This document shows positions 12,644 to 58,520 of a stretch of 64,000 nt of DNA, piece by piece. Each line of letters begins with the position of its first letter. The first letter of the stretch is position 1. Below the pieces are notes generated by a model. The model was not told the DNA's origin and did no database searches. It saw only the letters and a list, made by a program, of their open reading frames with translations. A program made the position numbers and the translations under genes. Source of the stretch: Streptosporangium brasiliense (lineage in GTDB: Bacteria; Actinomycetota; Actinomycetes; Streptosporangiales; Streptosporangiaceae); NCBI RefSeq assembly GCF_030811595.1, contig NZ_JAUSRB010000002.1, positions 6,696,001 through 6,760,000 of the forward strand. The letters are read 5' to 3'.

Positions 12644-12838
12644 GGGTTCCGGTAGTAATCGCGGAAAATCCAACGGATCTCGCCGACCAGCGTTGAGGTG
12701 AGGCATCCGGGCGAGGTCAGCGACATCCTCGGTCCGGCCACCGCACCCACTGACCGGCACACCGGTCCTGCGGTGCCCTCACATCAGAGCAGGCCAGGGG
12801 CGTATCCGTTGGATTTTCCGCGATTACTGCCGGAACCC
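12644..12838. mobile_element. 195-bp element bounded by 35-bp inverted repeats (CCAACGGAT family)
   Basis: The left arm 12644-12678 begins GGGTTCCGGTAGTAATCGCG and ends AATCCAACGGAT. The right arm 12804-12838 is its reverse complement with 34 of 35 bases matching. The 125-bp interior has no gene but is similar along its length to 48180-48285, which follows a single copy of the same repeat. It sits directly after the tyrosine recombinase/small protein pair. It is either a miniature element or a pair of recombination sites. Confidence 0.7.
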
Positions 12839-13025
12839 TGCGTCAAGGGGAGAACTTCACCGTACGCGCGGCCGCTGACCTTTTCGGGCTCTGACCCGCT
12901 CCTGATGCAGTGGTGGCGGAGCAGCCCGTGAACATAAGTCGCATGGCCTGAAATTCTGCGATCGCTCGCGGACATATAGGGATTGAAACCCTCTGAGCGT
13001 TCGGAAGGTCTGACGAGGATGACGC

Positions 13026-13574
13026 GTGGATGAAACAGACAACCGGGCTCGGTTCGAGGCTGTGTACCGGCGAACGTACGAGCAGATCCTCGGCTACGCC
13101 ACGCGGCGCTGCTCCTGCGCTGAGGACGCGGCCGACGTCGTGGCTGAGATCTATGTGATCGCCTGGCGGCGGATGGACGAACTCCCGCACGGCGAGGCCG
13201 ACAGGCTCTGGTTGTACGGCGTGGCCCGGCGGGTCCTGGCCAACCACCGTCGCGGCGAGCGACGCAGAGCCACCCGGCACGCCGAGCTCACGGCCGAAGC
13301 CGAGCTTTTCTACCCTCCGACCTTCTCCCAGAACGGGCCTGACGAGGTGGGCCCGGCCCTGGACATGCTTTCGGACAATGATCGCGAACTGCTGGCTCTG
13401 GCCGTCTGGGAAGAGCTCGACCCCGGACAGATCGCCGAGGTGCTGGACTGCTCGCGCAACGCCGCCCGCATCCGCCTGCACCGGGCCCGCAAGCGCTTCG
13501 CCAAAGCCCTGGAGAAGATCCACCCATCGGTCCGTCTCGAAGCGCGGACGCTCATCGAGAAGGAGGCACCGTGA
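13026..13574 (+). CDS. ECF-type RNA polymerase sigma factor (182 aa)
   Basis: Sigma region 2 is visible at residues 8-75 (FEAVYRRTYEQILGYATRRC..AEDAADVVAEIYVIAWRRMDELP, then RLWLYGVARRVLANHRRGERR). Region 4 lies at 115-170 (LALAVWEELDPGQIAEVLDCSRNAARIRLHRARKRF). The length is typical. GTG at 13026 has GAGG about 10 bases upstream. The next gene overlaps its stop by four bases (GTGA) and encodes a membrane protein, so the pair looks like a sigma factor with a membrane-bound partner that could act as anti-sigma or target. Confidence 0.85.
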   Translation: MDETDNRARFEAVYRRTYEQILGYATRRCSCAEDAADVVAEIYVIAWRRMDELPHGEADRLWLYGVARRVLANHRRGERRRATRHAELTAEAELFYPPTFSQNGPDEVGPALDMLSDNDRELLALAVWEELDPGQIAEVLDCSRNAARIRLHRARKRFAKALEKIHPSVRLEARTLIEKEAP

Positions 13575-14437
13575 ACAACGACCAGATCTTTAGGAGCCAG
13601 GCGAGGGTGCTGGACAAAGATCTGGTCGGCCGGGCGTCCTCCACGGGCGCGGACGCGCTGCTGGCGGAGATCGTCCTGCTGAAGCAGGCTCCGGCCCGGC
13701 GGCGTTTCGTGCCGTCTCCACGCCGGATCCTGTTCGGCGTAGTCGCGACCGTCGTCCTAGCGGGAGCCCTGGTCGTCGGGCCGTCCCTGTTCAGGGCGTC
13801 CGAGCAGGTATACGCCAGCCAGGCCGTGACGATCGACCGCGACGGCGACGAGTACGCCTTCTACATCACCGACGGCGATCCCGACCCCGCCGAGCTGGAG
13901 AAGGCCTTCCGCAAGGTCGGCCTGGACAACATCACGGTGAAGCTGATCCCCGTCTCGCCACAGCAGCGATCCCCCGTCGTCGGAGTTGACCTCGGCAAGG
14001 CCGGCCCCGGTGCTCGGGCGTCGGTCACCATGTCCGACTGCGCCGAGCGCGTCGAAGGATGCCTGACGGCCTTCCGCATCACCGCCGATCTCAAGGGGCC
14101 CGCGCAATTACGCCTGGGCCACCCGGCGAAGCCCGGCGAGAAATACGCCTACCCCGCCGACGCGAGTTGGCCGGGCGAGGCGCTGGCCGGAGTGAAGCTC
14201 CAAGGCCGATCCGCCGGCGAGGCGGCCCGCGTCGTGCGCGAACACGACCTTAAGGTGGCCTACGGGCTCGACTGGCCACTGAGGAGCGGGGAACAAGGTT
14301 TCCAGGTAGAGGAGAACGTGCCCGCTTCCCGCATCGACCCCAGCTGGGCGGTCGTGTCGGCTAAAACCTACAACGACGGCGTGATCATCCTGCACGTCAC
14401 GCCAGGCCCGGACGCGACCTGGCCGCCTGGCTTCTGA
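13571..14437 (+). CDS. Single-pass membrane protein with PASTA-like C-terminal domain (288 aa)
   Basis: A cytoplasmic N-terminus of about 55 residues precedes one membrane segment (LFGVVATVVLAGALVVGPSLF) and a long extracellular part. Its last 75 residues (GRSAGEAARVVREHDLKVAYGL..VPASRIDPSWAVVSAKTYNDGVIILHVTPGPD) have the helix-plus-strands pattern of a PASTA domain, which binds cell-wall fragments in other proteins. Translation is coupled to the ECF sigma gene. It could sequester the sigma factor at the membrane or be its main target. No HXXXCXXC zinc anti-sigma motif is present. Confidence 0.7.
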   Translation: MNNDQIFRSQARVLDKDLVGRASSTGADALLAEIVLLKQAPARRRFVPSPRRILFGVVATVVLAGALVVGPSLFRASEQVYASQAVTIDRDGDEYAFYITDGDPDPAELEKAFRKVGLDNITVKLIPVSPQQRSPVVGVDLGKAGPGARASVTMSDCAERVEGCLTAFRITADLKGPAQLRLGHPAKPGEKYAYPADASWPGEALAGVKLQGRSAGEAARVVREHDLKVAYGLDWPLRSGEQGFQVEENVPASRIDPSWAVVSAKTYNDGVIILHVTPGPDATWPPGF

Positions 14438-14571
14438 CCGATGCAAGATCGATAGCATACGCGGCCCCCGACGTCCCCAGCGAGAGAGCCCTCGGGGGCT
14501 GCGTCCAAGGCCTCCCCATCGTTGTTATCCCGCGCTGGCCTGCTCGGCCTTTGATCGGGTCCGTGCCACTG

Positions 14572-15013
14572 AGGGTTGAAGGGCTGGAGTTACAGCGGTT
14601 TGAGGATGAAGCCGGTCTGAGCAATGAATCCGTCCAACAGGCCGGATCGGTACTGCATTCGTTTGAGCTTGGTGGCGACGACTCCGGCGAGTTCGTCGAT
14701 GTCGCGAGGCGCGAGGTTGGCCAGAGCGCGCTTGAGCGCCGACCACACGCCCTCGGCCGGGTTCAGCTCCGGCGCATAAGCGGGCAACTGGAAGACCGTC
14801 AGCCACGGGCGGGCATCGATCAACGCGCGCATCGCGGCCGACAAGTGGCGGCGGTCATTGTCCCACACCAGCACGATCGCCCCGCCGAGCTGGGCGTGCG
14901 CGGCATCCAGCAGAGCTGCGAACCGCCGGGGATCAAAACCCTTGACCTCCCCGGGTCGCCCACGCCGGATCAGCATCCGATACATCAGCCGGGTGCTCAG
15001 CCCTTCAACCTCA
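14572..15013 (-). pseudogene. IS630-family transposase C-terminal remnant
   Basis: A frame at 14590-14985 encodes the second half of the DDE domain: AIVLVWDNDRRHLS (second Asp) and LPAYAPELNPAEGVWSALKR (Glu in NPxExxW). The N-terminal HTH half and first Asp are absent. GAGGGTTGAAGGGCT at 14572 and AGCCCTTCAACCTC at 14999-15012 are inverted, so an element end appears on both sides of a deleted copy. It is not the same copy as the IS630 remnant at 45686. Confidence 0.7.
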
Positions 15014-15135
15014 GATGCAGTCCCGACGGGACTGCGGGCCCTCGGCGCACCGCGAGCCGATCACGTTCATCAACTGATCGATTCTCAACAAGATCACGAT
15101 GGGTCGGAACGGTGCAAGACGCAGGATCGAAGGCT

Positions 15136-17475: not shown

Positions 17476-18707
17476 GGCGGTCTCAAGGGGTCAACGCATC
17501 ACCACACAATGACCTTGATCATTAGTGGAGGTGCGTGTGCGGGACTACGGGTTATCACCCGATCGCCAAGACGAGGTCTGGCAGCGATGGCGCAGCGGAG
17601 AGTCGCTGAGCTCCATCGCCCGGGGCGTCGGTGCTCCGCTACAGCATGTACGCCGCTTCTTCGCCCAGACCGGCGGCGTCCGGCCTCCTGCCGTACGACG
17701 CTCGCTCCGGCACCTGGCCGTCGCCGAGCGGGAGGAGGTCTCCCGTGGCCTGGCCGCCGGCCACTCGGCGCGGGCGATCGCCCGGCGGCTGGGACGCTCG
17801 GCCTCGACCGTCTCCCGGGAGATCGCCCGTAACGGCGGCCGCGAGCACTACCGGGCCCGAAACGCTGAAGACAACGCCCGTCGGCGGGCATGTCGCCCCA
17901 AGCCCGCCAAGCTGGCCCAACACCTCCATTTACGTGGCCTGGTGGAAGACAAGCTCGCCCGGCGCTGGTCACCCCAGCAGATCGCCGGCTGGCTGCGGCG
18001 CCGTTTTCCCCAGGCCCGGCACCTGCAGGTTTCCCACGAGACGATCTATCGCTCGTTGTTCGACCCACGGCGCCGGGCGATCAACCGGGACCTGTCGCGG
18101 CAGCTGCGCACCGGCCGGCCCATGCGTTATCCACGGACGGCCCGCCACGCCTCGGGCCGGGGTCGGCTGCGCGACATGGTCTCGATCAAAGCTCGTCCGC
18201 TCGAGGTCGAGACCCGTCTGATCGCCGGTCACTGGGAGGGCGATCTGGTGATGGGCAGCCGTCCCTCGGCGATCGCCACCCTGGTCGAGCGCACCAGCCG
18301 CTACGTGGTGCTGGTGGCGCTGCCCGATGGAATCAAGGCCGCGCAGGTCCGGCCGCATCTGACCCGCGTCTTCACCGGCCTGTCGCCGCAGATGCGCCGT
18401 TCGCTGACCTGGGATCGCGGCCGAGAGATGGCCGAGCATCGCCTCTTCAGCAACGACACCGGTGTCCCGGTCTACTTCTGTAAACGGCGCAGTCCCTGGC
18501 AGCGAGGGACCAACGAGAACACCAACGGGCTGCTACGGCAGTATCTGGCCAAAAGCGCCGACCTGCGCCACCTGACACAGGAAGACCTCGATGGCATCGC
18601 CGCCGAGCTCAACGACCGGCCTCGCCGGATCCACGACTTTCGAAGTCCAGCCGAGGTCTACGCTGACCTCATCAAAGACGGTGATGCGTTGACCCCTTGA
18701 GACCGCC
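17476..18707 (+). mobile_element. IS30-family insertion sequence, 1232 bp, intact
   Basis: The terminal inverted repeats are 28 bp and match perfectly. The left end 17476-17503 begins GGCGGTCTCAAGGGGTCAAC and the right end 18680-18707 is its reverse complement. The element encloses one full transposase gene. Both flanks carry AC next to the element, consistent with a 2-bp target duplication. With the element removed, the flanks join into an imperfect palindrome (CGTCCCGTAAACG / CGTTTCAGGGACG), the kind of target IS30 elements prefer. Confidence 0.9.
17525..18700 (+). CDS. IS30-family transposase (391 aa), apparently intact
   Basis: Two N-terminal HTH segments are visible (LSPDRQDEVWQRWRSGESLSSIARGVGAP and SARAIARRLGRSASTVSREIARNGG). 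The DDE domain follows, with triad Asp in GHWEGDLVMG, Asp in LTWDRGREMAEH and Glu in RGTNENTNGLLRQYL. The length is close to other IS30 transposases. No frameshift or internal stop is seen, so this element may still move. The truncated copy at 8297 shares its N-terminus. Confidence 0.9.
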   Translation: MEVRVRDYGLSPDRQDEVWQRWRSGESLSSIARGVGAPLQHVRRFFAQTGGVRPPAVRRSLRHLAVAEREEVSRGLAAGHSARAIARRLGRSASTVSREIARNGGREHYRARNAEDNARRRACRPKPAKLAQHLHLRGLVEDKLARRWSPQQIAGWLRRRFPQARHLQVSHETIYRSLFDPRRRAINRDLSRQLRTGRPMRYPRTARHASGRGRLRDMVSIKARPLEVETRLIAGHWEGDLVMGSRPSAIATLVERTSRYVVLVALPDGIKAAQVRPHLTRVFTGLSPQMRRSLTWDRGREMAEHRLFSNDTGVPVYFCKRRSPWQRGTNENTNGLLRQYLAKSADLRHLTQEDLDGIAAELNDRPRRIHDFRSPAEVYADLIKDGDALTP

Positions 18708-18713
18708 ACCGTT

Positions 18714-21710
18714 TCAGGGACGCCCCTCAGCCTCCTTCGTCCAGAACGCCAGGTTGGCCCGGGCGGTCAGCGTCTGCGGATGTTCAGGACCCAGCACCCG
18801 CTCACGCACTGGCAGCAGCGCCGCATACTGATCTCGCGCACCGACCGCATCCCCCGCCCGTCCCGTCCACCGGGCGAGGTTGGCCCGAGCGGTCAGCGTC
18901 TGCGGATGTTCAGGACCCGACACCCGCTCACGCACTGGCAGCAGCGCCGCATACTGATCTCGCGCACCGACCGCATCCCCCGTCCGTCCCGTCCAGAACG
19001 CCAGATTGGCCCGGTCAGTCAGCGTCTGCGGATGTTCAGGACCCGACACCCGCTCACGCACCGGCAGCAGCGCCGCAAACTGATCCCGCGCACCGACCGC
19101 ATCCCCTGCCTCCCCCGTCCACCCGGCGAGGTTGGCCCGGGCGGTCAGCGTCTCCGGATGTTCAGGACCCGACACCCGCTCGACTATCGGCAGCAGCGCC
19201 GCGAACAGACCCCGCGCACCGACCGCATCCCCCGTCCGTCCCGTCCAGAACGCCAGATTGGCCCGGGCGGTCAGCGCCTCCGGATGTTCAGGACCCAGCA
19301 CCCGCTCACGCACTGGCAGCAGCGCCGCGAACTGATCTCGCGCTCTGGCCGCATCCCCTGCCTCCCCCGTCCACCGGGCGAGGTTGGCCCGATCGGTCAG
19401 CGTCTGCGGATGTTCAGGACCCAGTACCCGCTCACGCACTGGCAGCAGCGCCGCGAACTGATCTCGCGCTCTGGCCGCATCCCCTGCCTCCCCCGTCCAC
19501 CGGGCGAGGTTGGCCCGATCGGTCAGCGTCTGCGGATGTTCAGGACCTGACACTCGCTCACGCACCGGCAGCAACGCCGCGAACTGATCCCGCGCACCGA
19601 CCGCATCCCCTGCCCGTCCCGTCCAGAACGCCAGATTGGCCCGGGCGGTCAGCATCTGCCGATGTTCAGGACCCGACACCCGCTCACGCACCGGCAGCAG
19701 CGCCGCGAACTGATCTCGCGCTCTGGCCGCATCCCCTGCCTCCCCCGTCCACCGGGCGAGGTTGGCCCGATCGGTCAGCGTCTGCGGATGTTCAGGACCT
19801 GACACTCGCTCACGCACCGGCAGCAACGCCGCGAACTGATCCCGCGCACCGACCGCATCCCCTGCCCGTCCTGTCCAGAACGCCAGATTGGCCTGGGCGG
19901 TCAGCGTCTGCGGATGTTCAGGTCCGCGGGCGTGGTGCAGCACGGTGTAGCGGCGGTGCTGCAGGGCTTGGGCGGAGCGGTAGTCGCCGCTGGCACCCAA
20001 GTAGTTGAGGATCGCGCGCATGGCGTCGGAGCCGGCGTCAAGGACAGCTTGGGCGTGTGGCAGCAGCCGAGCGTAGAGCGGCCAGGAGGAGATGCGCTCG
20101 GGGTCGTCGGGCAGGGCGGCCTGCAGCAGGTCGGCGGCGGCGGCGCGGGCGATGGTACGGGCGTCGTCGGGCAGGGCGGCCAGGGTGACGGCCTGGACCA
20201 GGCGGTGGACGCTCACCGCCCGCCCGTCCCGCGACCGATTGATCATGCTGTAGGAGGCCAGCACGCCCAGGGCGTCGGCGATCACGGCCGCATCGCCACC
20301 CTCGAACCCGGTCAGCACCTCACACGGCAGGTCGTCGGGGGCGTAGCAGGCCAGCGCCTGCAGCAGCCGCATCGCCCGTGGGTCGATCTGCTCGATCCGC
20401 GCACATGTCACCTGCCACACCCGGGCGACGACGCGGTCGGTCGCTGTGTCGCGTCGCGGGTCGGCGCTCAGCGCCCGCACCGGGGTGGTGCGCAGCAGGC
20501 CCAGATAGGTGGCCGGGTCCATGCCGGGGGTGGCGGCGATGTAGGCGCCGGCCTGCTTGAGGGCCAGTGGCAGCTCCCCCAGCTCCGCCGCCAGCTCCCC
20601 GGCCGACGCCCGGTCGACCGTGGTCTCGGCGCCGATCACCTCCAGCAGCAGCTGCACCGCATCGGCCTGCGGCAGCACGCCCAGTTGCAGCACCTCGCCA
20701 ACGTCCTGCCAGCCGACGGCGCGGCGACTGGTGACCAGCACGTGCCCGGCTCTCAGGCGGCCGAGACAGGGCTGCAGGTCCTCGGCGTCTGCGGCGTTGT
20801 CGAAGACCACCAGCCAGTCGTCATGGGCGGCCAGCCAGGCCAGCGCCCACGCCTCGGCCTCCTCGGCCGGAGCCTGGGCCGCGGCGTTGGAGGCCACGCC
20901 GGCACACAACGCCCGGCCCAGCTCGGCCAGCCCGGCCTGGATCTGCTCCGGGGTTTCGGCGGTGATCCACCACACCAGCCGGTAGGCGTCCCGGTGCCGG
21001 TGGGCGTACTGCAGGGCCAGCTCGCTCTTGCCGATCCCGCCCAGCCCGACCACCGCCTGCGTGATCACCCCGGGGCCGGAGCGCAGCGCCGGCTCCAGCC
21101 GCTCCAGCTGCTCCTGCCGGCCGACGAACACTCCCGCCGGGCGGCGCGGCAGCCCGGCCAGCCCAGCCGCCGGCACCTCCACCGCGCCGATGGGCGGCAG
21201 CGGTGGCCGCATCTGGGCGGCCGTCGTGGTGATCGTGGCCCCGTCGCCCGTGATGAGCATTCCGGCGGTGAGGTCGCCGGCCACGGCCACCGCCCGCTGG
21301 CCACCGGCCGCGGCGCCGCCCGGGCCGGCTGTCGTGCCGCCGGAGACCTGCCCGACGACCATGCCGCCCGACATCGCCCCGCCGACCACCGGCGACCCCG
21401 GCCCGGAGGAGGAGACAGCAGGCGCGGCGGGCGCATCGGACGATGGCGGGGTCTGCTGGCGCAGCAGGCCCACCCCGGCCACCGCCAGGCCCGCGATGCC
21501 GACGAACAGGCTGAGTACGCTGGCCCGCTTGTCCAGCACGTCCAGCGCCGCATCCGGCAGGTGCAGCGGATCGGCGAAGAACCCCACCAGCCCGGTGGCC
21601 AGTGCCAGCACCGATACGGCCACGACCACAGCTGCCACCACCCGGCGCCGATGGTGTCGAACCGGCGTCGGTGGCACACTCGCGGGCTGGGAGGAGGAGG
21701 AAGTCGGCAC
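18714..21710 (-). CDS. STAND NTPase: two membrane segments, NB-ARC domain, ten 42-residue TPRs (998 aa)
   Basis: In order: a basic N-terminus; two membrane segments (about 23-45 and 63-83); a Gly/Ala-rich linker; and an NB-ARC NTPase with Walker A GLGGIGKSELAL at about 222-233, Walker B WLVVFDNAAD, LGELPLAL, and VHRLVQAV in the MHD position. The C-terminus from about 590 consists of ten copies of a TPR of the form GPEHPQTLTxRANLAxWTGxAGDA. STAND proteins switch from autoinhibited to oligomeric on ligand binding by the repeat domain, and many bacterial members defend against phage. The membrane segments could be the effector. That role here is an inference. The stop lies 6 bases from the IS30 end, so the 3' region was nearly hit. 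Confidence 0.8.
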   Translation of the reverse strand: MPTSSSSQPASVPPTPVRHHRRRVVAAVVVAVSVLALATGLVGFFADPLHLPDAALDVLDKRASVLSLFVGIAGLAVAGVGLLRQQTPPSSDAPAAPAVSSSGPGSPVVGGAMSGGMVVGQVSGGTTAGPGGAAAGGQRAVAVAGDLTAGMLITGDGATITTTAAQMRPPLPPIGAVEVPAAGLAGLPRRPAGVFVGRQEQLERLEPALRSGPGVITQAVVGLGGIGKSELALQYAHRHRDAYRLVWWITAETPEQIQAGLAELGRALCAGVASNAAAQAPAEEAEAWALAWLAAHDDWLVVFDNAADAEDLQPCLGRLRAGHVLVTSRRAVGWQDVGEVLQLGVLPQADAVQLLLEVIGAETTVDRASAGELAAELGELPLALKQAGAYIAATPGMDPATYLGLLRTTPVRALSADPRRDTATDRVVARVWQVTCARIEQIDPRAMRLLQALACYAPDDLPCEVLTGFEGGDAAVIADALGVLASYSMINRSRDGRAVSVHRLVQAVTLAALPDDARTIARAAAADLLQAALPDDPERISSWPLYARLLPHAQAVLDAGSDAMRAILNYLGASGDYRSAQALQHRRYTVLHHARGPEHPQTLTAQANLAFWTGRAGDAVGARDQFAALLPVRERVSGPEHPQTLTDRANLARWTGEAGDAARARDQFAALLPVRERVSGPEHRQMLTARANLAFWTGRAGDAVGARDQFAALLPVRERVSGPEHPQTLTDRANLARWTGEAGDAARARDQFAALLPVRERVLGPEHPQTLTDRANLARWTGEAGDAARARDQFAALLPVRERVLGPEHPEALTARANLAFWTGRTGDAVGARGLFAALLPIVERVSGPEHPETLTARANLAGWTGEAGDAVGARDQFAALLPVRERVSGPEHPQTLTDRANLAFWTGRTGDAVGARDQYAALLPVRERVSGPEHPQTLTARANLARWTGRAGDAVGARDQYAALLPVRERVLGPEHPQTLTARANLAFWTKEAEGRP
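18760..19920 (-). repeat. Tandem array of 126-bp coding repeats
   Basis: About nine and a half units of 126 bases, each encoding one 42-residue TPR, are so alike that long blocks are identical (for example the segment giving AGDAARARDQFAALLPVRERV occurs in three or more units). Two alternating unit types (AFWTGRxGDAVGARDQ and ARWTGEAGDAARARDQ) show that pairs of units were duplicated together. This degree of identity implies recent expansion or gene conversion and makes copy number unstable. Confidence 0.85.
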
Positions 21711-37086: not shown

Positions 37087-37328
37087 GGGGGGCAGACCAA
37101 GTACGCCGGAAAGGGCTAACAGGGCTGGTCGGGCGGTGGGGGCGGAAGCCGGGGTTTCGGCTGTGGATGGCCGCGCCCGGCGTGGGGCCGGATTGGCTCC
37201 CGCAGCGGTCTGGCTGCGTTGACCTGGTCAGACGCCGTCCCGGGAACCGGACAGAGTTGACAGAGTTGTAGTCCTGTCCGATGTGCCCGCCGCCGTTGCC
37301 CCTTTCTCCCGTACTTGGTCTGCCCCCC
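37087..37328. mobile_element. 242-bp MITE with Tn3-type terminal repeats
   Basis: GGGGGGCAGACCAAGTACG at 37087-37105 faces the reverse complement at 37310-37328; the match continues imperfectly for about 10 more bases. The interior has no gene. Its right 120 bases repeat the Tn3 terminal region at 57840-57939 (landmarks GACCTGGTCAGACG, CGGGAACCGGACAG, CCGCCGCCGTTGCCCC). It is therefore an internally deleted Tn3 derivative that could be moved by a relative. A clear 5-bp target duplication was not found. Confidence 0.7.
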
Positions 37329-38650: not shown

Positions 38651-40144
38651 GGGTGCCACCGGAATACGGCAGAAACGGGCCGCAGGCTTGATCATCGATC
38701 GGAATCACTTCACAGTTGCCACAACCGCACGGTGCCGTCACTGCTGCCGCTGGCCAGGAGCTTGCCGTCGGGGCTGAAGGCCACCGCGGAGACCCCGCGG
38801 CCGGTGTGGCCGGCGAGGGGCTGGCCGCGGAGGGTGGCGGTCTCTTCCCGGGTGAAGGTGTAGTAGGCGGCCGGCAGGGCGGCGGCCAGACCTGCGACAC
38901 CCAGCCCGGTGAGCAGGCGGCGGCGGGACAGAACCCGGTGCGGCGCGGCAGCGACGTGCTCTCGCGGTGCGGATGCGGGCGCGGACCGATCCCCGAGACC
39001 GGGAGAGCCGGGTGCGTGGAGGGCCGACGCCTGGGGCGCCAGTGCAGGGGGCGCCGGGTCGACAGGTGGGGAGACGTGAAGCCGGGTAGCCGGTGCGGTT
39101 GCGGGGGGCGGGGCCGGCGCAGGCGCCTGGGCGGTGGGGGCGGCTAAGCCGGTTTCGATGGCCTGGCGCATCGCCGCGGCATCCCGGTGGCGCTGGTGAG
39201 GGTCTTTGGCCAGCGCGGTCGCCAGCATCTGGTCCCAGAAGGGGGCCAGGACCGGGTTCAGCTGTGAAGGCGGCAGCGGGGCCTTGTGCAGGTGCCCGAA
39301 GAGCACGACGGCGGGTGAGTCCCCGGTGAAGGGCGGGCGACCGGTGAGCATCTCGTACAACACGCATCCGGTGGAGTACAGATCCGAGCGGGCGTCGGTG
39401 GGCCTGCCGTCGGCCTGCTCGGGCGACATGTAGGACGGGGTGCCGATCCGCATCCCGGTGGCGGTCAGCCGGGTGGCCGTCTCCGACATGAGCTTGGCGA
39501 TCCCGAAGTCCATCACCTTCACCCGCACCCGGCCGCCGGCGCGGTGGACCATGATGTTGGCGGGTTTGATGTCGCGGTGCACCACCTCCCGCCCGTGGCT
39601 GTGCTCCAACGCCTCCAGGACGGCCGCCACGATCCGCCCGGCCTCCGCGGCGGTGGGCGGCGCCTGGCGCAGCAGATCGGCCAGTGTTCCGCCCTCCACC
39701 AGCTCCATCACCAGATACGGAACCGGATCCCCGCCATCGGTGCTCTCTCCGATGTCGTAGACGGTCGCGATGTGGGGATGCGACAAGCCCGCCGCCGCCC
39801 GCGCCTCCCGGCGGAACCGGGCCCGGAAGTCCTCATCGCGCAGCATCTGCGCGGGCAGCACCTTGACCGCCACGATCCGCTCCAGCTCCCGGTCACGCGC
39901 CCGGTACACCACCCCCATACCGCCGCGCCCCAACGGCTCCAGCAGCTCATACCGCCCTGACAGCGCCCTCACCACAACACCCCAACCTCTCCACCCCCCT
40001 CTGATCCACATCAAACTACGGGCAAGAGCGCAGGCCGGCGTCTCGGCCACCTCGGCGACTCCGCCGCCTACGCAGCACTCGCATAACGCTGACCAGCAGC
40101 TGTGCCACCCCGTGGCCCGTTTCTGCCGTATTCCGGTGGCACCC
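38651..40144. mobile_element. 1494-bp segment bounded by perfect 31-bp inverted repeats, carrying a Ser/Thr kinase
   Basis: The left repeat 38651-38681 begins GGGTGCCACCGGAATACGGC and ends AACGGGCC. The right repeat 40114-40144 is its exact reverse complement, 31 of 31 bases. The only gene between them is the kinase. No transposase or target duplication was found. A diverged copy of the repeat lies at about 58489-58518. The structure suggests a transposable or duplicated cassette. Confidence 0.65.
38710..39972 (-). CDS. Membrane Ser/Thr protein kinase with a single WD40 unit (420 aa)
   Basis: The kinase domain occupies residues 6-270: glycine loop LGRGGMGVVYRARD, catalytic Lys37 in VAVKVLP, HRDIKPANIM at 132-141, DFGIAK at 155-160, GTPSYMSPEQADG. 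A Pro/Ala-rich linker and one membrane segment (LLTGLGVAGLAAALPAAYY) lead to one WD40 unit (LAGHTGRGVSAVAFSPDGKLLASGSSDGTVRLWQL). The stop follows at once. Relatives usually carry a full propeller of about seven units, so this sensor looks truncated and may not fold alone. The GTG at 39972 starts just before the kinase core. Confidence 0.85.
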   Translation of the reverse strand: MRALSGRYELLEPLGRGGMGVVYRARDRELERIVAVKVLPAQMLRDEDFRARFRREARAAAGLSHPHIATVYDIGESTDGGDPVPYLVMELVEGGTLADLLRQAPPTAAEAGRIVAAVLEALEHSHGREVVHRDIKPANIMVHRAGGRVRVKVMDFGIAKLMSETATRLTATGMRIGTPSYMSPEQADGRPTDARSDLYSTGCVLYEMLTGRPPFTGDSPAVVLFGHLHKAPLPPSQLNPVLAPFWDQMLATALAKDPHQRHRDAAAMRQAIETGLAAPTAQAPAPAPPPATAPATRLHVSPPVDPAPPALAPQASALHAPGSPGLGDRSAPASAPREHVAAAPHRVLSRRRLLTGLGVAGLAAALPAAYYTFTREETATLRGQPLAGHTGRGVSAVAFSPDGKLLASGSSDGTVRLWQL

Positions 40145-41121: not shown

Positions 41122-41166
41122 GCTCACACGGCTCTCCGTTTCCTGGGTTGGGCGGCCCCGGAGAGG

Positions 41167-41362
41167 GGTCTCGGTAGCAATGGAGCAGAATCCAACGAAC
41201 CTGCTGCTGACCTGCGGGTGGAGACCGCAGATCAGGCGACAGGGTAGAAGCTGGGTTTCGGCTGTGGACGGCCGTACCCGGCGTGGGGCCGGATTGACTC
41301 CTGTAGCGGTCTCGCCGCGCTGACCTGGGCAGACGACATCACGGGAACGGGACAGTACGGAA
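41167..41362 (+). repeat. Single CCAAC-family site followed by a Tn3-derived 115-bp repeat
   Basis: 41167-41200 (GGTCTCGGTAGCAATGGAGC, then AGAATCCAACGAAC) is a member of the site family seen at 12644, 45526 and 58446. From 41246 to 41362 the DNA matches 37147-37260 of the MITE for about 115 bases (shared GGTTTCGGCTGTGGA, CCCGGCGTGGGGCCGGATTG, GCAGACG, GACAG). No terminal GGGGGCAGACC repeat is present. No gene is seen between 41122 and 41486. Confidence 0.65.
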
Positions 41363-45523: not shown

Positions 45524-45660
45524 GGGGTCCCGGTAGTATCGGCGAGACTTTCAACGGATATGCAGGTCAGAGCTTCCTTAAAGACCTTCGGGAACAACTT
45601 GGAAGGCGGGCCGCTGACCTGCATATCCGTTGTTTTCTGTGTCGTTACTACTGGGACCCC
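45524..45660. mobile_element. 137-bp inverted-repeat element (CCAACGGAT family)
   Basis: The left arm 45524-45569 and right arm 45612-45660 share an outer GGGGTCCC-GTAGTA block and an inner CAACGGATATGCAGGTCAG block, with a diverged 10-base gap between them. The loop is 42 bases and has no gene. It is the second inverted pair of the family after 12644-12838. An IS630 remnant abuts the right end. Confidence 0.65.
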
Positions 45661-45685: not shown

Positions 45686-46776
45686 TTACAGCGACGTGAG
45701 GACCAGGCCGGTCCCGGCCAGGCAACCGTCGATCAGATGCGGCCGGTACTGGATCTTCTTCAGTCCTCGCTTGACCACTCGCACCAGCTCATCCAGGCCA
45801 CTCACCGCGAGGTTGGCCGGCCCGCCGCGATTCAGCAGCGACCAGACGCCCTCTGTCGGGTGGAGATCGGGCGCATACGCCGGTAGCTGGACGACCCGCA
45901 GCCAGTCGGCGCTCTCGGCGATGAACCGGCGTATTTCCGCGCAGGTATGCCGATTCAGGTTGTCCCAGATCAGCACGGTCGGCGCGCTGAGTTGCCGGTG
46001 TGCCAGGAGAATCAGGTCGCGGTAGTCGGCCCAGGTGAAGCTCGCCTTCTCATCCTTGCGCCGCCGATGGACATGCACCCGCTACAGCAGCCGGGAACGC
46101 TCACCGGGCCGGTAGCAGGTCAGCGCGGCCACCGAGATGCGGCCCGCGCGCCGCCCCGGCACGTGCGCCACCGGCGGGGCGCCGCGCGGGGCCCGGCTCC
46201 GCGCGATCGGTGCTCTCAGCGTCCGGCCGCACTCGTCTTCGAAGCAGACCCAGGCATCCAGGTCCGCCGCGGCCTTTCCACGGCCGGCCACACCTCCGTC
46301 TTCCACACCACGATCGCGCCCTCATCGCGCTCGATGGCCCGGCGCGCCGGAACCTGGCATGACCAGCCGTGCCGCCGCAGCAGCTTCCACACCCCGGGCA
46401 AGGAGTAGCTCAGGTGGAACATCCGGCCGATCACCTTCCGGATGCGGGCCAGGGTCCAGTACTGGTCGTTCCAGCCGTGCGCGGCCGGGCCGCGCAGCAG
46501 CGCGGCCTCCAGTCGGGCGAAGCGCGCCTCATCCAGCACCGGCAGCGAGGCCGGGCCCTTGGAGGCCGGCGCCGCATCCCCGCCGCGGGCCCAGGCGCGG
46601 CGCCAGCGGTTGGCCGACATCCGGCTGACCCGCAGTTCCTTGGCCACCTGGGCGTCGCTGTAGTCCCGGGCGAACAGTTCGGCCGCGCGCAGCCGTACCT
46701 GTTCGCGCTTGGCTCGTTGTCCGGCGGTCAGCCCGCCGCCTTGCGCGTACCGCATGTTCTGGGCGTACCACGACAA
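45686..46776 (-). pseudogene. IS630-family transposase, broken by a frameshift and a stop
   Basis: Starting at 46776 the HTH half is present (LTAGQRAKREQVRLRAAELFARDYSDAQVAKELRVSRMSANRWRRAWARGG). The frame shifts near 46260 into WVCFEDECGRTLRAP..GRISVAALTCYRPGERSRLL. A TAG at about 46082 interrupts it, and HVHRRRKDEKASF..LIWDNLNRHT..NPTEGVWSLL-type DDE sequence (LHPTEGVWS here) continues to 45686. Catalytic Asp, Asp and Glu remain visible, so decay is recent. The total length is near a full element. Confidence 0.75.
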
Positions 46777-46819
46777 CCCGGCGTGGTCACATGATCGCTT
46801 AACACCACGAATTAAAGAT

Positions 46820-46850
46820 CAGTAATCGCCGAAAATCCAACGGATATACC
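46820..46850 (+). repeat. Single CCAACGGAT-family site before the MFS gene
   Basis: CAGTAATCGCCGAAAATCCA followed by ACGGATATACC matches the family; the outer GGTTCC block is lost. It lies 68 bases before the MFS start, in the same orientation as the copy just after the MFS gene at 48157. Confidence 0.6.
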
Positions 46851-46917
46851 CCTGCTCCGATGATGCCGCTCGCTGAAATTTCGCAGAGCGCCACAACACA
46901 CCCCTAGGGTCGATCAG

Positions 46918-48150
46918 ATGCCCCCCGCTTTCCGTCGTTACGTCACCGCCGACGGCTTCAGCCAGTTCGGCACCCAGGTCACGCGCGTGGCCCTCCCACT
47001 GGTCGCGCTGCTGGTGCTCGACGCGGGCCCGTTCGAGATCGGCCTGCTCAGCGCCGCCGAGATGATCGGTTTCCTCCTCTTCGGGCTGCCCGCCGGCGTG
47101 TGGGTCGACCGGTTGCGCAGGAAGCCCATCCTGGTGACGGCCGACGTGCTGCGCGCGGTGTCCCTGGCCTCCATCCCGATCGCCGCGCTGTTCGACGCGC
47201 TCACGCTGGCGCAGCTCTACGCGGTCGCCGTGATCGTCAGCATCGGCACGGCCTTCTTCGACGTCGCCCACCTGAGCTTCCTGCCCTCCATCGTGACCAA
47301 GGAGCAGCTGCCCAAGAGCATGGGGACCCTGGAGTCCGTACGCAGCCTCGCCGGGCTCTTCGGCCCCGGGCTCGGCGGCTGGCTCGTGCAGGCGCTCACG
47401 GCGCCCATCGCCATCGTGGCCGACGCGGTGAGCTACATGATCTCCGCCACCCTGCTGGCGACCGTCAAGGCCAAGGAGACTCCCTCCGGGGGGCGCGTGA
47501 GCCTCATGGAGGGCCTGCGCTACGTGCTCGGCCACCCCATCCTGCGCCTGATCGGCCTCGGCGGCGCCATGAACATGTTCATCAACGGCATCTGGGCCAT
47601 CGTCCAGCCGTTGTACCTGGTCGACGAGCTGGGCGTGAGCGCGACGGCCTACGGCCTGATGATCTCGGGCGCGGGGGCCGGCGGCCTGCTCGGCGCGCTC
47701 CTCGCGCCACGCGTGATCGCCCGCTTCGGTCACGGCCCCACGATGTGGGGCACAGCCGTCCTCATGCTGCCGCTCAACGTGCTCGTCGCCTTCACCGGAC
47801 CCGGCTGGCGGCTCGCCCTCTACCCGATCGGCATGGCACTCGTCTTCCTGGCCGGGGTGATGTTCAACGTCGCCCAGGGCAGTTACCGCCAGGCGATCTG
47901 CCCAGAGGCCCTGCGCGGCAGGATGAACGCCAGCCTCCGCTTCCTCATGTGGGGTTCGCTGCCGCTCGGCGGTGTCATCGGCGGGCTGCTGGGCGAGGCC
48001 GTCACCGTTCACCAGCTCCTGTGGATCGCCTGCCTCGGCACCGCGGCGGCCCACCTACCCTTCGTGCTGGCTCCCGCCGTACGAAAGCTCAAGATCACGG
48101 ACGACAGCGGCCGTGAGGACGCCGACGCCAAGGAGGACAGCCGCGCGTAG
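46918..48150 (+). CDS. MFS-family exporter (410 aa)
   Basis: About twelve hydrophobic segments with the MFS loop 2-3 motif GLPAGVWVDRLRRKP and FIPS-like LSFLPSIVTKEQLPKSMGTLESVRSLAGLFGPGLGGWLVQ in the helix 4-5 region. The layout resembles macrolide/multidrug exporters of the DHA3 group. It ends in a charged tail (KLKITDDSGREDADAKEDSRA). No regulator is adjacent. It lies between two same-orientation copies of the CCAACGGAT site, like a mobile gene cassette. The substrate is unknown. Confidence 0.85.
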   Translation: MPPAFRRYVTADGFSQFGTQVTRVALPLVALLVLDAGPFEIGLLSAAEMIGFLLFGLPAGVWVDRLRRKPILVTADVLRAVSLASIPIAALFDALTLAQLYAVAVIVSIGTAFFDVAHLSFLPSIVTKEQLPKSMGTLESVRSLAGLFGPGLGGWLVQALTAPIAIVADAVSYMISATLLATVKAKETPSGGRVSLMEGLRYVLGHPILRLIGLGGAMNMFINGIWAIVQPLYLVDELGVSATAYGLMISGAGAGGLLGALLAPRVIARFGHGPTMWGTAVLMLPLNVLVAFTGPGWRLALYPIGMALVFLAGVMFNVAQGSYRQAICPEALRGRMNASLRFLMWGSLPLGGVIGGLLGEAVTVHQLLWIACLGTAAAHLPFVLAPAVRKLKITDDSGREDADAKEDSRA

Positions 48151-48156
48151 GTCGTC

Positions 48157-48285
48157 GGGGTGCGGAAAATCCAACGGATATCGCTTCGCCAGCGTCGAAG
48201 TGGAGCATCCGGCGAGGTCAGCGGCACCCTCGACCCAGCCCGCTGCGCCCACCAACCGGCATACCAGCCATGCGATGCCCTCACA
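48157..48285 (+). repeat. CCAACGGAT-family site plus interior shared with 12662-12790
   Basis: TGCGGAAAATCCAACGGATA (48161-48180) is followed by about 105 bases similar to the inside of the 12644 element (shared CCAGCGT, GCATCCGG-CGAGGTCAGCG, CCGGCA, TGCCCTCACA). The right-hand repeat is missing; tyrosine recombinase coding sequence takes its place. Confidence 0.65.
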
Positions 48286-48596
48286 GCATCGACCGGCACG
48301 GCCGCATCACCACCGGCCACACCGGCGCCTCGGGCAAGACCGCCCCGCGGATCAGCGGGCACGGTCTGAACCTCATCGTGCGCCGCGCCGCGACGCGGGC
48401 CGGCCTGCCGGGCGCCGAGACCTACACCGCGCACTCGCTGCGCGCCGGCGGGGCCACCGCCGCCGCCAAGAACGGGGCGCCGGTCTCGGCGATCGCCCGG
48501 CACGGCCGCTGGTCGGAGACCTCCCCCGTCGTGCACGGCTACATCCGCTCCGCCGACAAGTGGCGCGACAACCCCATACGCGGCATCGGCCTGTGA
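48270..48596 (+). pseudogene. Tyrosine recombinase C-terminal fragment
   Basis: The frame encodes GHGLNLIVRRAATRAGLPGAETYTAHSLRAGGATAAAKNGAPVSAIARHGRWSETSPVVHGYIRSADKWRDNPIRGIGL. His-x-x-Arg (HSLR), the second His (ARHGRW) and the nucleophile Tyr (HGYIR) are present, but the N-terminal domain and the first catalytic Arg are missing. It is a different lineage from the intact enzyme at 11168. It joins directly to a CCAACGGAT-family repeat. Confidence 0.75.
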
Positions 48597-55269: not shown

Positions 55270-55385
55270 GGTGTTTCACAGGCGAGGACTCATGAAACAC
55301 CGGCCCTGGCCGATCACGACCAGGGACTCCCCTGTTTCATAGGTCGGTGCAAACGGGTAACAAGTTGAAACACTCCTATGAAACG
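55270..55385. promoter_or_regulatory. Candidate res site array for the adjacent serine recombinase
   Basis: GGTGTTTCA (55270-55278) pairs with TGAAACACC (55293-55301). Further on, TGTTTCATAGG (55333-55343) pairs with CCTATGAAAC (55375-55384), and TTGAAACACTCC lies between them at 55365. Four to five copies of one TGTTTCA motif, in both orientations, directly precede the recombinase start, as expected for a three-subsite res region. Confidence 0.65.
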
Positions 55386-55393
55386 ATCTTGGG

Positions 55394-56239: not shown

Positions 56240-56445
56240 GCGAACGACACGGCGCCATCAGCGGCGGCCACCCCCGCAGGCTGATCGGCCAATCATCGGC
56301 AGCACCGTCCACCGCGACGGCGGTCCGCCCTCATTCCCCACCCCGCCTCGGCACTCTGAGCGACTGGTCGGCAAGTTGGTCGGTGCTGGCGCCAAAATCC
56401 GGTCCGATCCTCCCCGGAGGCCGTCAGGTGAAGGGAGCGGCGGAG

Positions 56446-56727
56446 ATGCGTCAGGAGTGGGAGCCTGAGGAGCTGATCGCGGCGTGGACGCTGCTGGACA
56501 GCGACTGGGATCTGGTGGGGAACAAGACGGGGGCGACCCGTCTGGGCTTCGGCCTGCTGCTGAAGTTCTTTGAGCAGGAGGGCCGCTTCCCGCGACATGC
56601 GGGTGAGGTGCCGCGGGCGGCGGTGGACTACATGGCCGGGCAGGTGAAGGTCGATGCTGCGCTGTTTTCGGAGTATCGGTGGTCGGGGTCCACACCCTGC
56701 CCATGGCGGTGTGCACTGCCCCGATGA
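56446..56727 (+). pseudogene. Tn3-family transposase N-terminal fragment, copy 1
   Basis: ATG 56446 after GTGAAGGGAGCGGCGGAG starts RQEWEPEELIAAWTLLDSDWDLVGNKTGATRLGFGLLLKFFEQEGRFPRHAGEVPRAAVDYMAGQVKV, the DUF4158 N-terminal domain of Tn3 transposases. After about 85 residues (ALFSEYRWSG) the match stops and the frame ends at 56727. About 90 percent of the protein is missing. A second copy lies inverted at 57543-57674. Confidence 0.85.
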
Positions 56728-56734
56728 GGCCCTG

Positions 56735-57274
56735 TCAGACGCCTTGGCGTATGTACAGGTCGCGCAGCAGGCCGATCTCGCCGCCGTGATGCGCGACCTC
56801 GACCAGGGCGTGCAGTGCGAGCTTCAGGTAGGTCTCCTCGGCCCAACCGCCGGGACCCATGCCGATCGGGGCCAGCAGACGCTGGTCGCCGAGGGCGGCG
56901 ATGCGGGAGGTGAAGTGCTCCCAGTCCTCGGCGAGCGCCTCGATGCCCTCTTTCGCGGTGCCCGGCCACTCGTCGCGCTCGCCGAACTCGGGGGCGTCGT
57001 CGAAGAGGTAGATCACGTAGCCGCGCAGGCAGAGGTTGCCGATGTGCCAGATGCGCCAGGCGATCGTGGTGACGGGGTCCGGCGCATCCGGGCTCGACTC
57101 CGGAAAGACCGCGTCGACGCGGAAGACGCCGTCGTCGCCGGGGCGCAGGCCGACGCAGTCGCTGACCGGCTCCCAGTGGTACTCGGCGTCGGTCAGGCCC
57201 TCAAGGCGCCTGAACAGCATGGATCGCGCGCGTTCGAAGCTGGCGAGGATGTCCCGGGTGGCGGGATCGGTCAT
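56735..57274 (-). CDS. DinB-family protein (179 aa)
   Basis: A four-helix DinB/DUF664 protein: DILASFERARSMLFRRLEGLTDAEYHWEPVSDCVGLR, then TTIAWRIWHIGNLCLRGYVIYLFDD (metal-side His in WHIGN), ending HALVEVAHHGGEIGLLRDLYIR (second and third His of the metal triad). Many family members are thiol-dependent transferases that bind a divalent metal. ATG 57274 is 30 bases from the divergent nucleotidyltransferase fragment. Both lie between two inverted Tn3 N-terminal fragments. Confidence 0.8.
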   Translation of the reverse strand: MTDPATRDILASFERARSMLFRRLEGLTDAEYHWEPVSDCVGLRPGDDGVFRVDAVFPESSPDAPDPVTTIAWRIWHIGNLCLRGYVIYLFDDAPEFGERDEWPGTAKEGIEALAEDWEHFTSRIAALGDQRLLAPIGMGPGGWAEETYLKLALHALVEVAHHGGEIGLLRDLYIRQGV

Positions 57275-57304
57275 GTCCACCTGATGCACCCTATAGTCCG
57301 GATC

Positions 57305-57571
57305 ATGGAGCGCTATGCCGGGGATGTCGCATCGGTGATGTCGGAGATATTCGGCCCACGCCTCGTGGGCGCGTATCTGCACGGTTCTGCGGTGCTCGGG
57401 GGCTTCGACCCGCGACGCAGTGACGTCGACCTCCTCGTCGTCTGCCAGGACCCGATGACGGCAGAGCAGCGCTCGGCCGTCGCCGAGCGGCTGAGCGACG
57501 ACCGGCTGCCGTGCCCGGCTCAAGGGCTGGAGCTGAGCGTCGTCACCCTCGCCACCACGCAGCTTCGCTGA
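57305..57571 (+). pseudogene. Nucleotidyltransferase (AadA-like) N-terminal fragment
   Basis: ATG 57305 starts MERYAGDVASVMSEIFGPRLVGAYLHGSAVLGGFDPRRSDVDLLVV; GSAVLGGFDPRRSDVDL is the GS-x10-DxD active-site motif of ANT-type aminoglycoside nucleotidyltransferases. Only about 88 residues remain. At 57543-57571 the frame runs into the inverted Tn3 fragment and stops. The C-terminal helical domain that binds the drug is lost, so it cannot confer resistance as it stands. Confidence 0.75.
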
Positions 57572-57674
57572 AGCCCAGACGGGTCGCCCCCGTCTTGTTC
57601 CCCACCAGATCCCAGTCGCTGTCCAGCAGCGTCCACGCCGCGATCAGCTCCTCAGGCTCCCACTCCCGACGCAT
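57543..57674 (-). pseudogene. Tn3-family transposase N-terminal fragment, copy 2
   Basis: The minus-strand ATG at 57674 starts RREWEPEELIAAWTLLDSDWDLVGNKTGATRLGF, nearly identical to copy 1 at 56446. It ends at the nucleotidyltransferase fragment after about 35 matching residues. Confidence 0.85.
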
Positions 57675-57939
57675 CTCCGCCGCTCCCTTCACCTGACCGA
57701 CCCCCGAGAACAGGGCACACGATCGAACGGGGAACACCCCCTACGCCCCGGTACGCGCGATTCGTGACGACTACGAACCGCAACCGTGATCTAGCTCATC
57801 GCTACTTTGGGGCTGGGGACGCCTTCGGGAGCAGGGCGCCGACCTGGTCAGACGTCGTCTCGGGAACCGGACAGGGTTGTAGTTCTGTCCTGTATGTCCG
57901 CCGCCGTTGCCCCTTTCCGGCTTACTTGGTCTGCCCCCT
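57675..57939 (-). mobile_element. Tn3-family left end with terminal repeat
   Basis: Reading inward from 57939 on the minus strand: GGGGGCAGACCAAGTAAGCC then GGAAAGGGGCAACGG, about 225 bases of leader, and the transposase ATG at 57674. This is the only place where terminal repeat, leader and transposase start are still joined, so it defines the element end for the other copies (5965, 21838, 37087, 37328). Confidence 0.75.
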
Positions 57940-57940
57940 C

Positions 57941-58276
57941 TCAGGCACCGGGTCGCCGTAGTCGCGCGCGTCCGGTCGCGGCGGCGGTCACCAGCAGCGC
58001 GCCGCACAGTCCCATGCCCAGCGTCGTCACCGCGGCCAGCGTCGAGCCTTCCTCGATCGACAGTGACGCCAGCCCGGCCAGTCCCGCCGCGACCCCCGCG
58101 GCCATGATCCACTGCTCGATCTCCTCGTGCGTGATCTCCCACGATCGCGCGTCCCCCAAGCCGATCCTGGCCGTCAGCCCGCCCCAGCCGGGCACCGGCC
58201 CGAGCCTGACGCGCCGCGCGAGTACGAACAGGGCAAGGCCGACGCTCAGCAAACACAATCCCGCGACCTCGTTCAC
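57941..58276 (-). CDS. Small membrane protein, 3' end formed by the Tn3 insertion (111 aa)
   Basis: The N-terminal hydrophobic segment NEVAGLCLLSVGLALFVLARRV is followed by two more (IMAAGVAAGLAGLASLSI and LAAVTTLGMGLCGALLVTAAA). The frame ends with ARLRRPGA at a TGA that begins two bases from the Tn3 terminal repeat, so the original C-terminus may have been cut. No family is recognised. Confidence 0.5.
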   Translation of the reverse strand: MNEVAGLCLLSVGLALFVLARRVRLGPVPGWGGLTARIGLGDARSWEITHEEIEQWIMAAGVAAGLAGLASLSIEEGSTLAAVTTLGMGLCGALLVTAAATGRARLRRPGA

Positions 58277-58445
58277 GACACCCTCCAGCAGGCGGTGGAT
58301 CCTGGCCTGGCGACGCCGTATGACGCCGCTCTTTCCAGTCCCATGGTGAGCCGGTACCCGGGCCCGTCACCATGGCTTTAACACGATCCATATGCCTTTG
58401 CGGGATTTCCTGACGCCTTCACCACGCCGCATTCCCGGATGTCGG

Positions 58446-58520
58446 GGTCCCGGTAGCAATGGAGCAGAATCCAACGGACTCGCCCCGAGGGGCCACCGGA
58501 GTGCGGCGGGAACGGACCAT
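58446..58520 (+). repeat. CCAACGGA-family site followed by a diverged kinase-element repeat
   Basis: 58446-58480 (GGTCCCGGTAGCAATGGAGC, then AGAATCCAACGGACTCGCC) is nearly identical to the site at 41167. At 58489-58518 the sequence GGGCCACCGGAGTGCGGCGG followed by GAACGGACC resembles the 31-bp repeat of the kinase element. The remainder of 58277-58720 has no gene I can support. Confidence 0.6.

What the first reader, a model, noticed from the sequence alone, without database searches (positions are those of the whole stretch)
12644..58480. A dispersed family of about 35-bp CCAACGGAT sites beside tyrosine recombinases
Eight copies of one site can be aligned: 12644, 12838 (minus), 41167, 45526, 45658 (minus), 46820, 48157 and 58446. 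The consensus is GGTYCCGGTAGTAATCGCGG followed by AAAATCCAACGGATATC. Two pairs form inverted elements of 195 and 137 bp, and two direct copies bracket an MFS gene (46820 and 48157). One pair lies just after an intact tyrosine recombinase with a coupled small protein; another copy leads into a truncated recombinase. Established knowledge says tyrosine recombinases act on short inverted-repeat cores. I infer that these are recombination sites or ends of a cassette-type element that captures genes. I know of no named element with this repeat, but I could not search.
Basis: partly seen in the sequence, partly recalled or inferred. Interest (0 to 1): 0.75.

Follow-up and report, generated by a model that had tools for sequence, protein, structure and literature searches.

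The report
Tn3-type mini-transposons that can carry genes
The repeated 36-letter sites are the ends of small gene-less jumping elements derived from the Tn3 family of transposons, scattered in soil actinomycetes and sometimes found in pairs around other genes; the neighbouring recombinase gene is very probably a bystander.

Summary
The sites are real and far above chance. They are the 38-bp terminal inverted repeats (starting GGGG) of short non-autonomous elements of about 197, 154 and 137 bp, not tyrosine-recombinase sites. Related repeats (24 to 36 of 38 positions) bound Tn3-family transposons in related genomes, with the transposase beginning 48-147 bp from the outer end of one repeat. Of 17 larger units, 10 carry a perfect 5-bp target duplication. 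The window elements are therefore Tn3-derived miniature elements (TIMEs). In relatives, inverted pairs enclose cargo (TIME-COMPs): one three-gene unit is shared by four genomes at 97-99% identity in unrelated flanks, and 2 of 6 composites have perfect duplications. The recombinase at 11168 has relatives without the elements; 10 of 16 element genomes lack it. It has its own 28-bp palindrome upstream. Two facts stand out: these elements are multi-copy, whereas published TIMEs are usually single-copy; and solo elements almost never keep a duplication (1 of 44), perhaps through unresolved replicative transposition, unproven.

The parts
12643..12839 (+). 197-bp Tn3-derived miniature element (TIME, class A); left end 12643-12680, right end 12802-12839 (minus); first G of each GGGG end is changed to C or A
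   Evidence: arms 97% complementary over 35 bp; 13 places in the own genome with E<=5.9e-13, query included
45524..45660 (+). 137-bp TIME (class B) with inverted ends and GCAGGTCAG subterminal motif
   Evidence: same class repeated in relative G002
41165..41200 (+). single end of a 154-bp class TIME (truncated copy)
   Evidence: resembles one end of the L021 and L022 elements
58444..58479 (+). single end of a 154-bp class TIME (truncated copy)
46820..46854 (+). right-type TIME end without its first 10 bp or so; interior lost
   Evidence: matches element positions 152-186, reversed
48162..48288 (+). TIME fragment, element positions 18-143 (80% identity), left-type end facing the MFS gene
46918..48150 (+). 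MFS transporter between the two TIME fragments: possible decayed composite cargo
   Evidence: PF07690; same block at 94-97% in three other genomes in other flanks; 2 of these 3 loci have no TIME end in the stretch held and L240 has an end of another subtype about 800 bp away
5254..5955 (-). Tn3-family transposase fragment (about 25-28% like the group with matching ends)
   Evidence: NF033527 and PF01526
55378..56724 (+). ORF holding an N-terminal Tn3 transposase fragment (about residues 351-439)
   Evidence: PF13700 and NF033527
59957..60199 (+). C-terminal Tn3 transposase fragment
   Evidence: PF01526 positions 309-389
11168..12286 (+). intact tyrosine recombinase; neighbour, judged not part of the element
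   Evidence: PF00589, XerC/D-like but below cut-offs; relatives without TIME ends
12286..12630 (+). small ORF overlapping the recombinase stop codon; no family match; present beside the closest recombinase relatives only
   Evidence: found in L143, L012, L177, L178, not in L179-L183, L190, L159
11119..11146 (.). 28-bp palindrome (11-bp arms, one mismatch, 6-bp centre) just upstream of the recombinase: candidate core site or operator of the recombinase
   Evidence: in 10 genomes searched, 10 places with 0-1 mismatch, all directly upstream of a recombinase copy

Best explanation
[quoted passage not shown] The elements encode no protein. Inferred: a Tn3-family transposase supplied by a full transposon binds the two 38-bp ends and moves the element by replicative (paste-and-copy) transposition. 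Shown from sequence: transposons with related ends exist in related genomes and have 5-bp target duplications; two elements in inverted orientation can bracket other genes; and one such unit sits at different places in four genomes, ending at or within about 12 bp of the element ends. Inferred: most solo copies lost or never had target duplications because unresolved intramolecular transposition causes deletions and inversions next to the element. The tyrosine recombinase at 11168 is a separate unit with its own palindromic site.
For: Ends: the element-end consensus matches 12 transposase-associated ends at 24-32 of 38 positions, and that of L259 at 36 of 38. The transposase of the group carries full Tn3 models (NF033527 819.5 bits, PF01526, PF13700). 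Units with CCAACG-type ends on both sides, a transposase beginning 128-145 bp from one outer end and a perfect 5-bp duplication: L258 (9131 bp, open frame of 1024), L261 (10012 bp, one alignment, frame not settled), L262 (9122 bp, transposase in two pieces), L273 (3662 bp, 2 in-frame stops). Larger units overall: 10 of 17 with 5/5. Composites: L137 (4618 bp, CTCTT) and L270 (1658 bp, AGCCC), 2 of 6; the unit shared by G004, G010, G012 and G078. One solo element with AATGC on both sides (L144). Boundary: L178 matches the window through recombinase and small ORF to the base before the GGG of the element. Reversed-pattern control: 0 in every genome listed.
Against: Only 1 of 44 solo elements has a perfect 5-bp duplication, none has 4 of 5, and 3-of-5 matches are at chance. 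The recent four-genome composite has none in the two copies with both ends intact (1/5 and 2/5). L269 has 2/5, and L259, whose ends are closest to the window's, 1/5. No transposase with exactly the window's ends was found. The three full-length Tn3 transposases of the own genome are only about 25-33% like the matching group; ends of this type were not found on them, apart from a 136-bp miniature element about 1 kb before one. Three transposase loci of the group or near it, with the gene start in view, show no such end (L216, L217, L221). Duplications split between copies: chance numbers only (2 of 946 pairs, 0.9 expected; 1 of 903, 0.9 expected). Transposition was not observed.
Confidence: 0.93

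Rival explanations
1. The sites are recombination sites of the neighbouring tyrosine recombinase, in an integron-like cassette system.
For: The small ORF after the recombinase ends 12 bp before the 12643 element; in G012 (L143) a recombinase copy abuts a half element, and in L012 a decayed copy lies about 0.8 kb from an end. Both occur together in 6 of 149 genomes (16 with element, 14 with recombinase; 1.5 expected if independent, relatedness not corrected). The inner ends ATCCAAC and GTTGGAT fit the attC motif (recalled, not tested).
Against: 10 of 16 element genomes lack the recombinase; G002 has 49 end matches at up to 3 mismatches and no homologue at E<=1e-30. Eight recombinase loci show no such end. 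Related ends belong to Tn3 transposons with 5-bp duplications. The recombinase is far below the integron integrase cut-off (40 vs 265 bits) and has its own palindrome.
Confidence: 0.03
2. TIMEs as above, but the missing duplications come from homologous recombination between copies, not from unresolved intramolecular transposition.
For: Szuplewska et al. 2014 proposed this for their TIMEs, of which only 4 of 18 had direct repeats (PMC4133298, section read). Many similar copies exist per genome.
Against: Exchange should leave matching duplications on different copies; none above chance, although the set of ends is incomplete and old.
Confidence: 0.25
3. Solo elements are single surviving ends of larger composites, so each has one outer and one cargo flank and never had its own duplication.
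For: In 6 of 6 composites of the 197-bp class the same end (CCCCTGACCTG side) faces outward (L133, L134, L135, L136, L137, L269); three of these are one unit, so about four independent cases. A 4600-bp pair in G263 has a full element on one side and a single end on the other (L260).
Against: No partner with a matching outer duplication above chance in the stretches of the own genome or G002. L144 shows that a solo element can move alone.
Confidence: 0.3

Closest known systems
TIMEs of Pseudomonas (Szuplewska et al. 2014, PMC4133298; abstract, the section on databases and found passages seen)
   Same: short, no transposase gene, 38-bp Tn3-type ends, able to form composites; most database copies lack direct repeats (4 of 18 have them)
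   Different: published ones are mostly 262 bp, mostly from Pseudomonas and usually single copy; these are 137, 154 and 197 bp, in Streptosporangiaceae and relatives, with tens of ends in some genomes (22 own, 49 in G002 at up to 3 mismatches)
TIME-COMPs of Enterobacteriaceae: TIME244, IS101, MITESen1, IMU (Gomi and Yano 2026, PMC13367494; abstract, introduction, overview section and found passages seen)
   Same: two TIMEs in inverted or direct orientation around cargo, 5-bp repeats at the outer ends in most, 1 to 11 kb; the IMU ones lack repeats
   Different: cargo there is resistance genes, mainly on plasmids; here an ArsR-type three-gene set or a heavy-metal ATPase-like ORF, other cargo not identified
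Tn4556 of Streptomyces (PMC6403206; found passages and one section seen)
   Same: actinomycete class-II transposon with transposase, resolvase, 38-bp ends and 5-bp target duplication
   Different: its end letters were not in the text seen, so the ends were not compared
Integron cassettes with attC sites (recalled)
   Same: tyrosine recombinase next to imperfect palindromes, gene capture
   Different: no IntI-level match, no cassette array seen, ends match DDE transposons

Membership tests
Tn3-derived miniature element (TIME) | about 38-bp terminal inverted repeats related to those of Tn3-family transposons | tested here: met
   (24-36 of 38 positions)
Tn3-derived miniature element (TIME) | under about 500 bp, no transposase gene | tested here: met
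   137, 154 and 197-bp classes
Tn3-derived miniature element (TIME) | 5-bp (or 6-bp) target duplication | tested here: inconclusive
   solo elements 1 of 44; composites 2 of 6; larger units with such ends 10 of 17; neither window element has one (1/5 and 2/5)
Tn3-derived miniature element (TIME) | mobilised in trans by a Tn3-family transposase | not testable with these tools
   needs a transposition assay
TIME-COMP | two TIMEs bounding cargo, direct repeats at outer ends | tested here: met
   in relatives: L137 CTCTT and L270 AGCCC; repeats not met in L133, L136, L269, 4 of 5 in L134
TIME-COMP | window copies around the MFS gene form a composite | tested here: inconclusive
   fragments in opposite orientation, but the same MFS block occurs in three genomes without such a frame
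Integron / attC cassette system | IntI-type integrase | tested here: not met
   TIGR02249 40 bits against cut-off 265
Integron / attC cassette system | sites co-occur with the integrase | tested here: not met
   10 of 16 genomes with the element lack it; 6 of 16 have it
Insertion sequence or transposon carried by the recombinase | recombinase enclosed by a pair of the elements | tested here: not met
   in none of 11 loci scanned, within the stretches held; L143 is cut short by a contig end

The most novel reading that the evidence does not exclude
In Streptosporangiaceae these TIMEs act as a genome-remodelling system: with no resolution site, each transposition inside a chromosome ends as a deletion or inversion with an intact element at the junction. 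Solo copies would then mark old rearrangement breakpoints, and paired copies with one fixed end outward would export the genes between them.
Probability: 0.2. Interest if true: 0.55.

Novelty: new member of a known kind. Interest (0 to 1): 0.35.

Why it matters
The TIMEs and TIME-COMPs in the papers seen are from Proteobacteria and usually single copy. In the paper searches made here (listings only, open-access library) no actinomycete TIME appeared, and the words Actinobacteria or Actino and Streptomyces do not occur in the three papers on TIMEs and MITEs that were checked for them. A multi-copy family with three size classes, transposons with related ends and gene-carrying composites would extend this route of gene movement to soil actinomycetes. 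The regular absence of target duplications makes a testable question of what unresolved Tn3-type transposition does to a chromosome.

Tried and rejected
Rejected: tyrosine-recombinase cassette system (see rivals). Rejected: the 195-bp block as long ends of an element carrying the recombinase. The inverted pairs in relatives enclose other genes, and the recombinase unit is found without them.

Led nowhere: ends of the full-length Tn3 elements of the own genome (other ends or none found); exchange of target duplications between copies (null); plasmid collection search with the 203-bp element (no match); MFS block as proof of a composite in the window (undecided). In one search three comparisons of the window with L133, L135 and L137 gave no output, because an option was given twice; they are not relied on.

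Rows dropped before the duplication count: from 56 short elements, 11 that are arms of composites and L128 (at a contig end) were set aside, leaving 44. L135 and L143 were left out of the 6 composites because an arm is cut; L260 was left out of both larger units and composites because one side is a single end. The 17 larger units are those with a pair of ends in the stretches I chose to fetch, not a random sample; places where the listing showed a pair were favoured. They are not all transposons with an intact transposase (some hold fragments; in L267, L271 and L272 none was found). The elements of L260, L269 and L270 came after the count of 56 and are not in it. Search counts are lower bounds where the tool scored only the first candidates.
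Full report
What was seen. The eight sites are in the sequence. The pair at 12643-12839 is one 197-bp element with near-perfect inverted ends, and the pair at 45524-45660 is a 137-bp one. The sites at 41165 and 58444 are single ends of a 154-bp class. Those at 46820 and 48162-48288 are truncated pieces of two 197-bp elements in opposite orientation around an MFS gene. Chance is excluded for the better sites: simulated windows reach 12 mismatches of 36 at best, in 6 of 200, while six window sites have 2 to 9.

A family of elements, not isolated sites. With the 203-bp stretch around 12643 as query, 13 places in the own 10.49-Mb genome match at E<=5.9e-13, query included. In 149 genomes searched, 16 (own included) match at E<=1e-6. 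A degenerate 38-bp end pattern, which also takes in the sister transposon ends, is found in 77 of 345 genomes of the order at up to 2 mismatches; the reversed control pattern is 0 in every genome listed. Twenty-seven full-length 197-bp elements align with mean pairwise identity 0.81 (0.50 to 0.995).

What the ends belong to. Transposons with such ends were found in related genomes. L258 is 9131 bp, with identical ends ...AATCCAACGGATAT, a Tn3-family transposase (stop-free stretch of 1024 codons) whose alignment begins 128 bp from one outer end, and the duplication GGTAT. L261 is 10012 bp (TGAAG), L262 is 9122 bp (TGCTA, transposase in two alignments) and L273 is 3662 bp (CTCCT; 2 in-frame stops). 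A sister group has ends ...AATCGGGCGGATAT or similar: L172, 16688 bp (TTCAC) and L266, 5278 bp (TACGT), both with an open transposase frame; L264, L265, L268 and L176 with fragments and a perfect duplication; L171 with 4 of 5. Larger units without a perfect duplication are L171, L175, L259, L263, L267, L271 and L272. The transposase of L172 is a full Tn3 transposase (NF033527 819.5 bits against a cut-off of 500; PF01526 and PF13700).

Among 30 transposase loci brought in by similarity (L208-L237), 12 have an end of this type at or close before the start of the transposase or its fragment: L208-L210, L212-L215, L218, L219, L222, L223 and L226 (in L226 the fragment begins at residue 373). L227 has an end inside a transposase fragment, and L231 a 136-bp miniature element about 1 kb before a distant Tn3. 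The other 16 show none: 7 are of the distant group at 27-31% identity (L229, L230, L232, L233, L235-L237), 6 lack the gene start or its upstream side (L211, L220, L224, L225, L228, L234), and 3 have the start in view and still no end (L216 at 60%, L217 at 57%, L221 at 46%), which is unexplained. The window element's end consensus agrees with 12 such ends at 24 to 32 of 38 positions and with that of L259 at 36 of 38, though L259 itself shows no duplication (1 of 5) and its transposase is interrupted. In the own genome a sister-type end lies about 440 bp from a Tn3 fragment (L066, L092), but no complete matching transposon was found.

Composites. In G010, G078, G004 and G012 two inverted 197-bp elements enclose the same 1.57-kb cargo: a mycothiol maleylpyruvate isomerase N-terminal-domain protein, an ArsR-type regulator and an AHSA1-domain protein (named in L136, and ArsR in L133). 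The unit is 97-99% identical, and alignments stop at or within about 12 bp of the element ends. In G012 the left arm is cut to half, and in G078 the far end of one arm is cut. The two copies with both ends intact show no duplication (1/5 in L133, 2/5 in L136). In Streptosporangium pseudovulgare (L129, contained in L137/G001) two inverted elements enclose 4.2 kb with a heavy-metal P-type ATPase-like ORF, with CTCTT on both sides. L270 (G160) is a 1658-bp composite of two 154-bp elements with AGCCC on both sides; L134 has 4 of 5 and L269 2 of 5.

Target duplications. Larger units: 10 of 17 perfect. Composites: 2 of 6. Solo short elements: 1 of 44 (L144). Solo against larger units: Fisher p = 2e-6. 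Apart from L144 the short elements are at the level of shuffled flanks. The larger units were chosen from fetched stretches, so their rate is not a population estimate. Duplications split over two copies were sought and not found above chance in the own genome (2 of 946 pairs) or G002 (1 of 903). Low rates were already reported for TIMEs: 4 of 18 (PMC4133298). My preferred cause, unresolved intramolecular replicative transposition, is inference from the known mechanism (paste-and-copy, PMC13367494 introduction). Homologous recombination and lost composite partners are not excluded.

The recombinase. The protein at 11168 is a tyrosine recombinase (PF00589; XerC/D-like but below cut-offs), followed by a 114-aa ORF with no family match. 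That ORF is beside the recombinase in L143, L012, L177 and L178 and not found in L179-L183, L190 or L159. Relatives of the recombinase at E<=1e-30 are in 14 of 149 genomes (own included), and 6 of these 14 also have the element. Of 11 recombinase loci scanned, 3 have a TIME end nearby (window, L143, L012) and 8 have none (L177-L183, L190). Upstream of the gene lies a 28-bp palindrome, 11-bp arms around 6 bp. In ten genomes searched, 10 places match at 0 or 1 mismatch and each is directly upstream of a recombinase copy; the other matches, at 2 mismatches in G001, G012 and G051, are elsewhere. The G051 copy (53% identical), the decayed copy L012 and the more distant copies held showed none. Homology between copies of the unit begins within about 13 bp of this palindrome. 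It may be the recombinase's own core site or its operator; not tested. Past the small ORF, L178 matches the window up to the base before the GGG of the 12643 element and then diverges. This fits the element's edge and shows that the recombinase unit exists without it; the right flank of the element found no counterpart in the loci held.

Verdict. This is a new family of a known kind of element. The mechanism (Tn3 transposase in trans) is inferred with high confidence from shared ends, duplications and composites; no transposition was observed. Papers: abstracts, sections or found passages of PMC4133298, PMC13367494, PMC10969869 and PMC6403206 were seen; everything else in print was seen only as search listings. 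That no actinomycete TIME is in print rests only on these searches of an open-access library.

Noticed in passing
window 11119-11146: 28-bp palindrome (11-6-11) directly upstream of the tyrosine recombinase, present with 10 of 11 intact recombinase copies (53% identity or more) in the genomes searched; candidate recombination core or operator.
   Followed up: partly
window 12286-12630: 114-aa protein overlapping the recombinase stop codon, with a CxxC motif and no match in Pfam, NCBIfam or PHROGs; beside the recombinase in 4 of 11 other loci tested, the closest ones.
   Followed up: partly
window 45692-46788 (minus): Broken transposase remnant with winged-helix and DDE_3 domains between the 137-bp element and the MFS gene; looks like IS630-type, a recalled label.
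   Followed up: partly
window 56411-56553 and 57567-57709: 143-bp inverted arms, 95% complementary, around 1 kb holding an ORF with a weak nucleotidyltransferase match (ANT(9)-like, far below cut-off) next to a Tn3 transposase start.
   Followed up: no
window 18599-20032 (within ORF 18714-21710 minus): Ten copies of a 126-bp-spaced tandem repeat in a 998-aa ORF with tetratricopeptide repeats and weak NB-ARC/AAA matches.
   Followed up: no
window 37087-37328, 57836-57938, 5964-6076, 57729-57841, 38651-40144: Several other dispersed inverted and direct repeat families (e.g. a 113-bp pair 87% complementary 51 kb apart) that do not look like the TIME ends; possibly other miniature elements.
   Followed up: no
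window 46849-48160: MFS transporter block found at 94-97% in three other genomes with differing flanks, so it seems to move by some means; no TIME frame there.
   Followed up: partly
G026:C1 (L180, L181, L182): Three recombinase copies on one 62-kb contig, two with identical search scores and identical printed upstream sequence, though a 3-kb stretch is not letter-for-letter the same; perhaps a plasmid or a repeated assembly.
   Followed up: no
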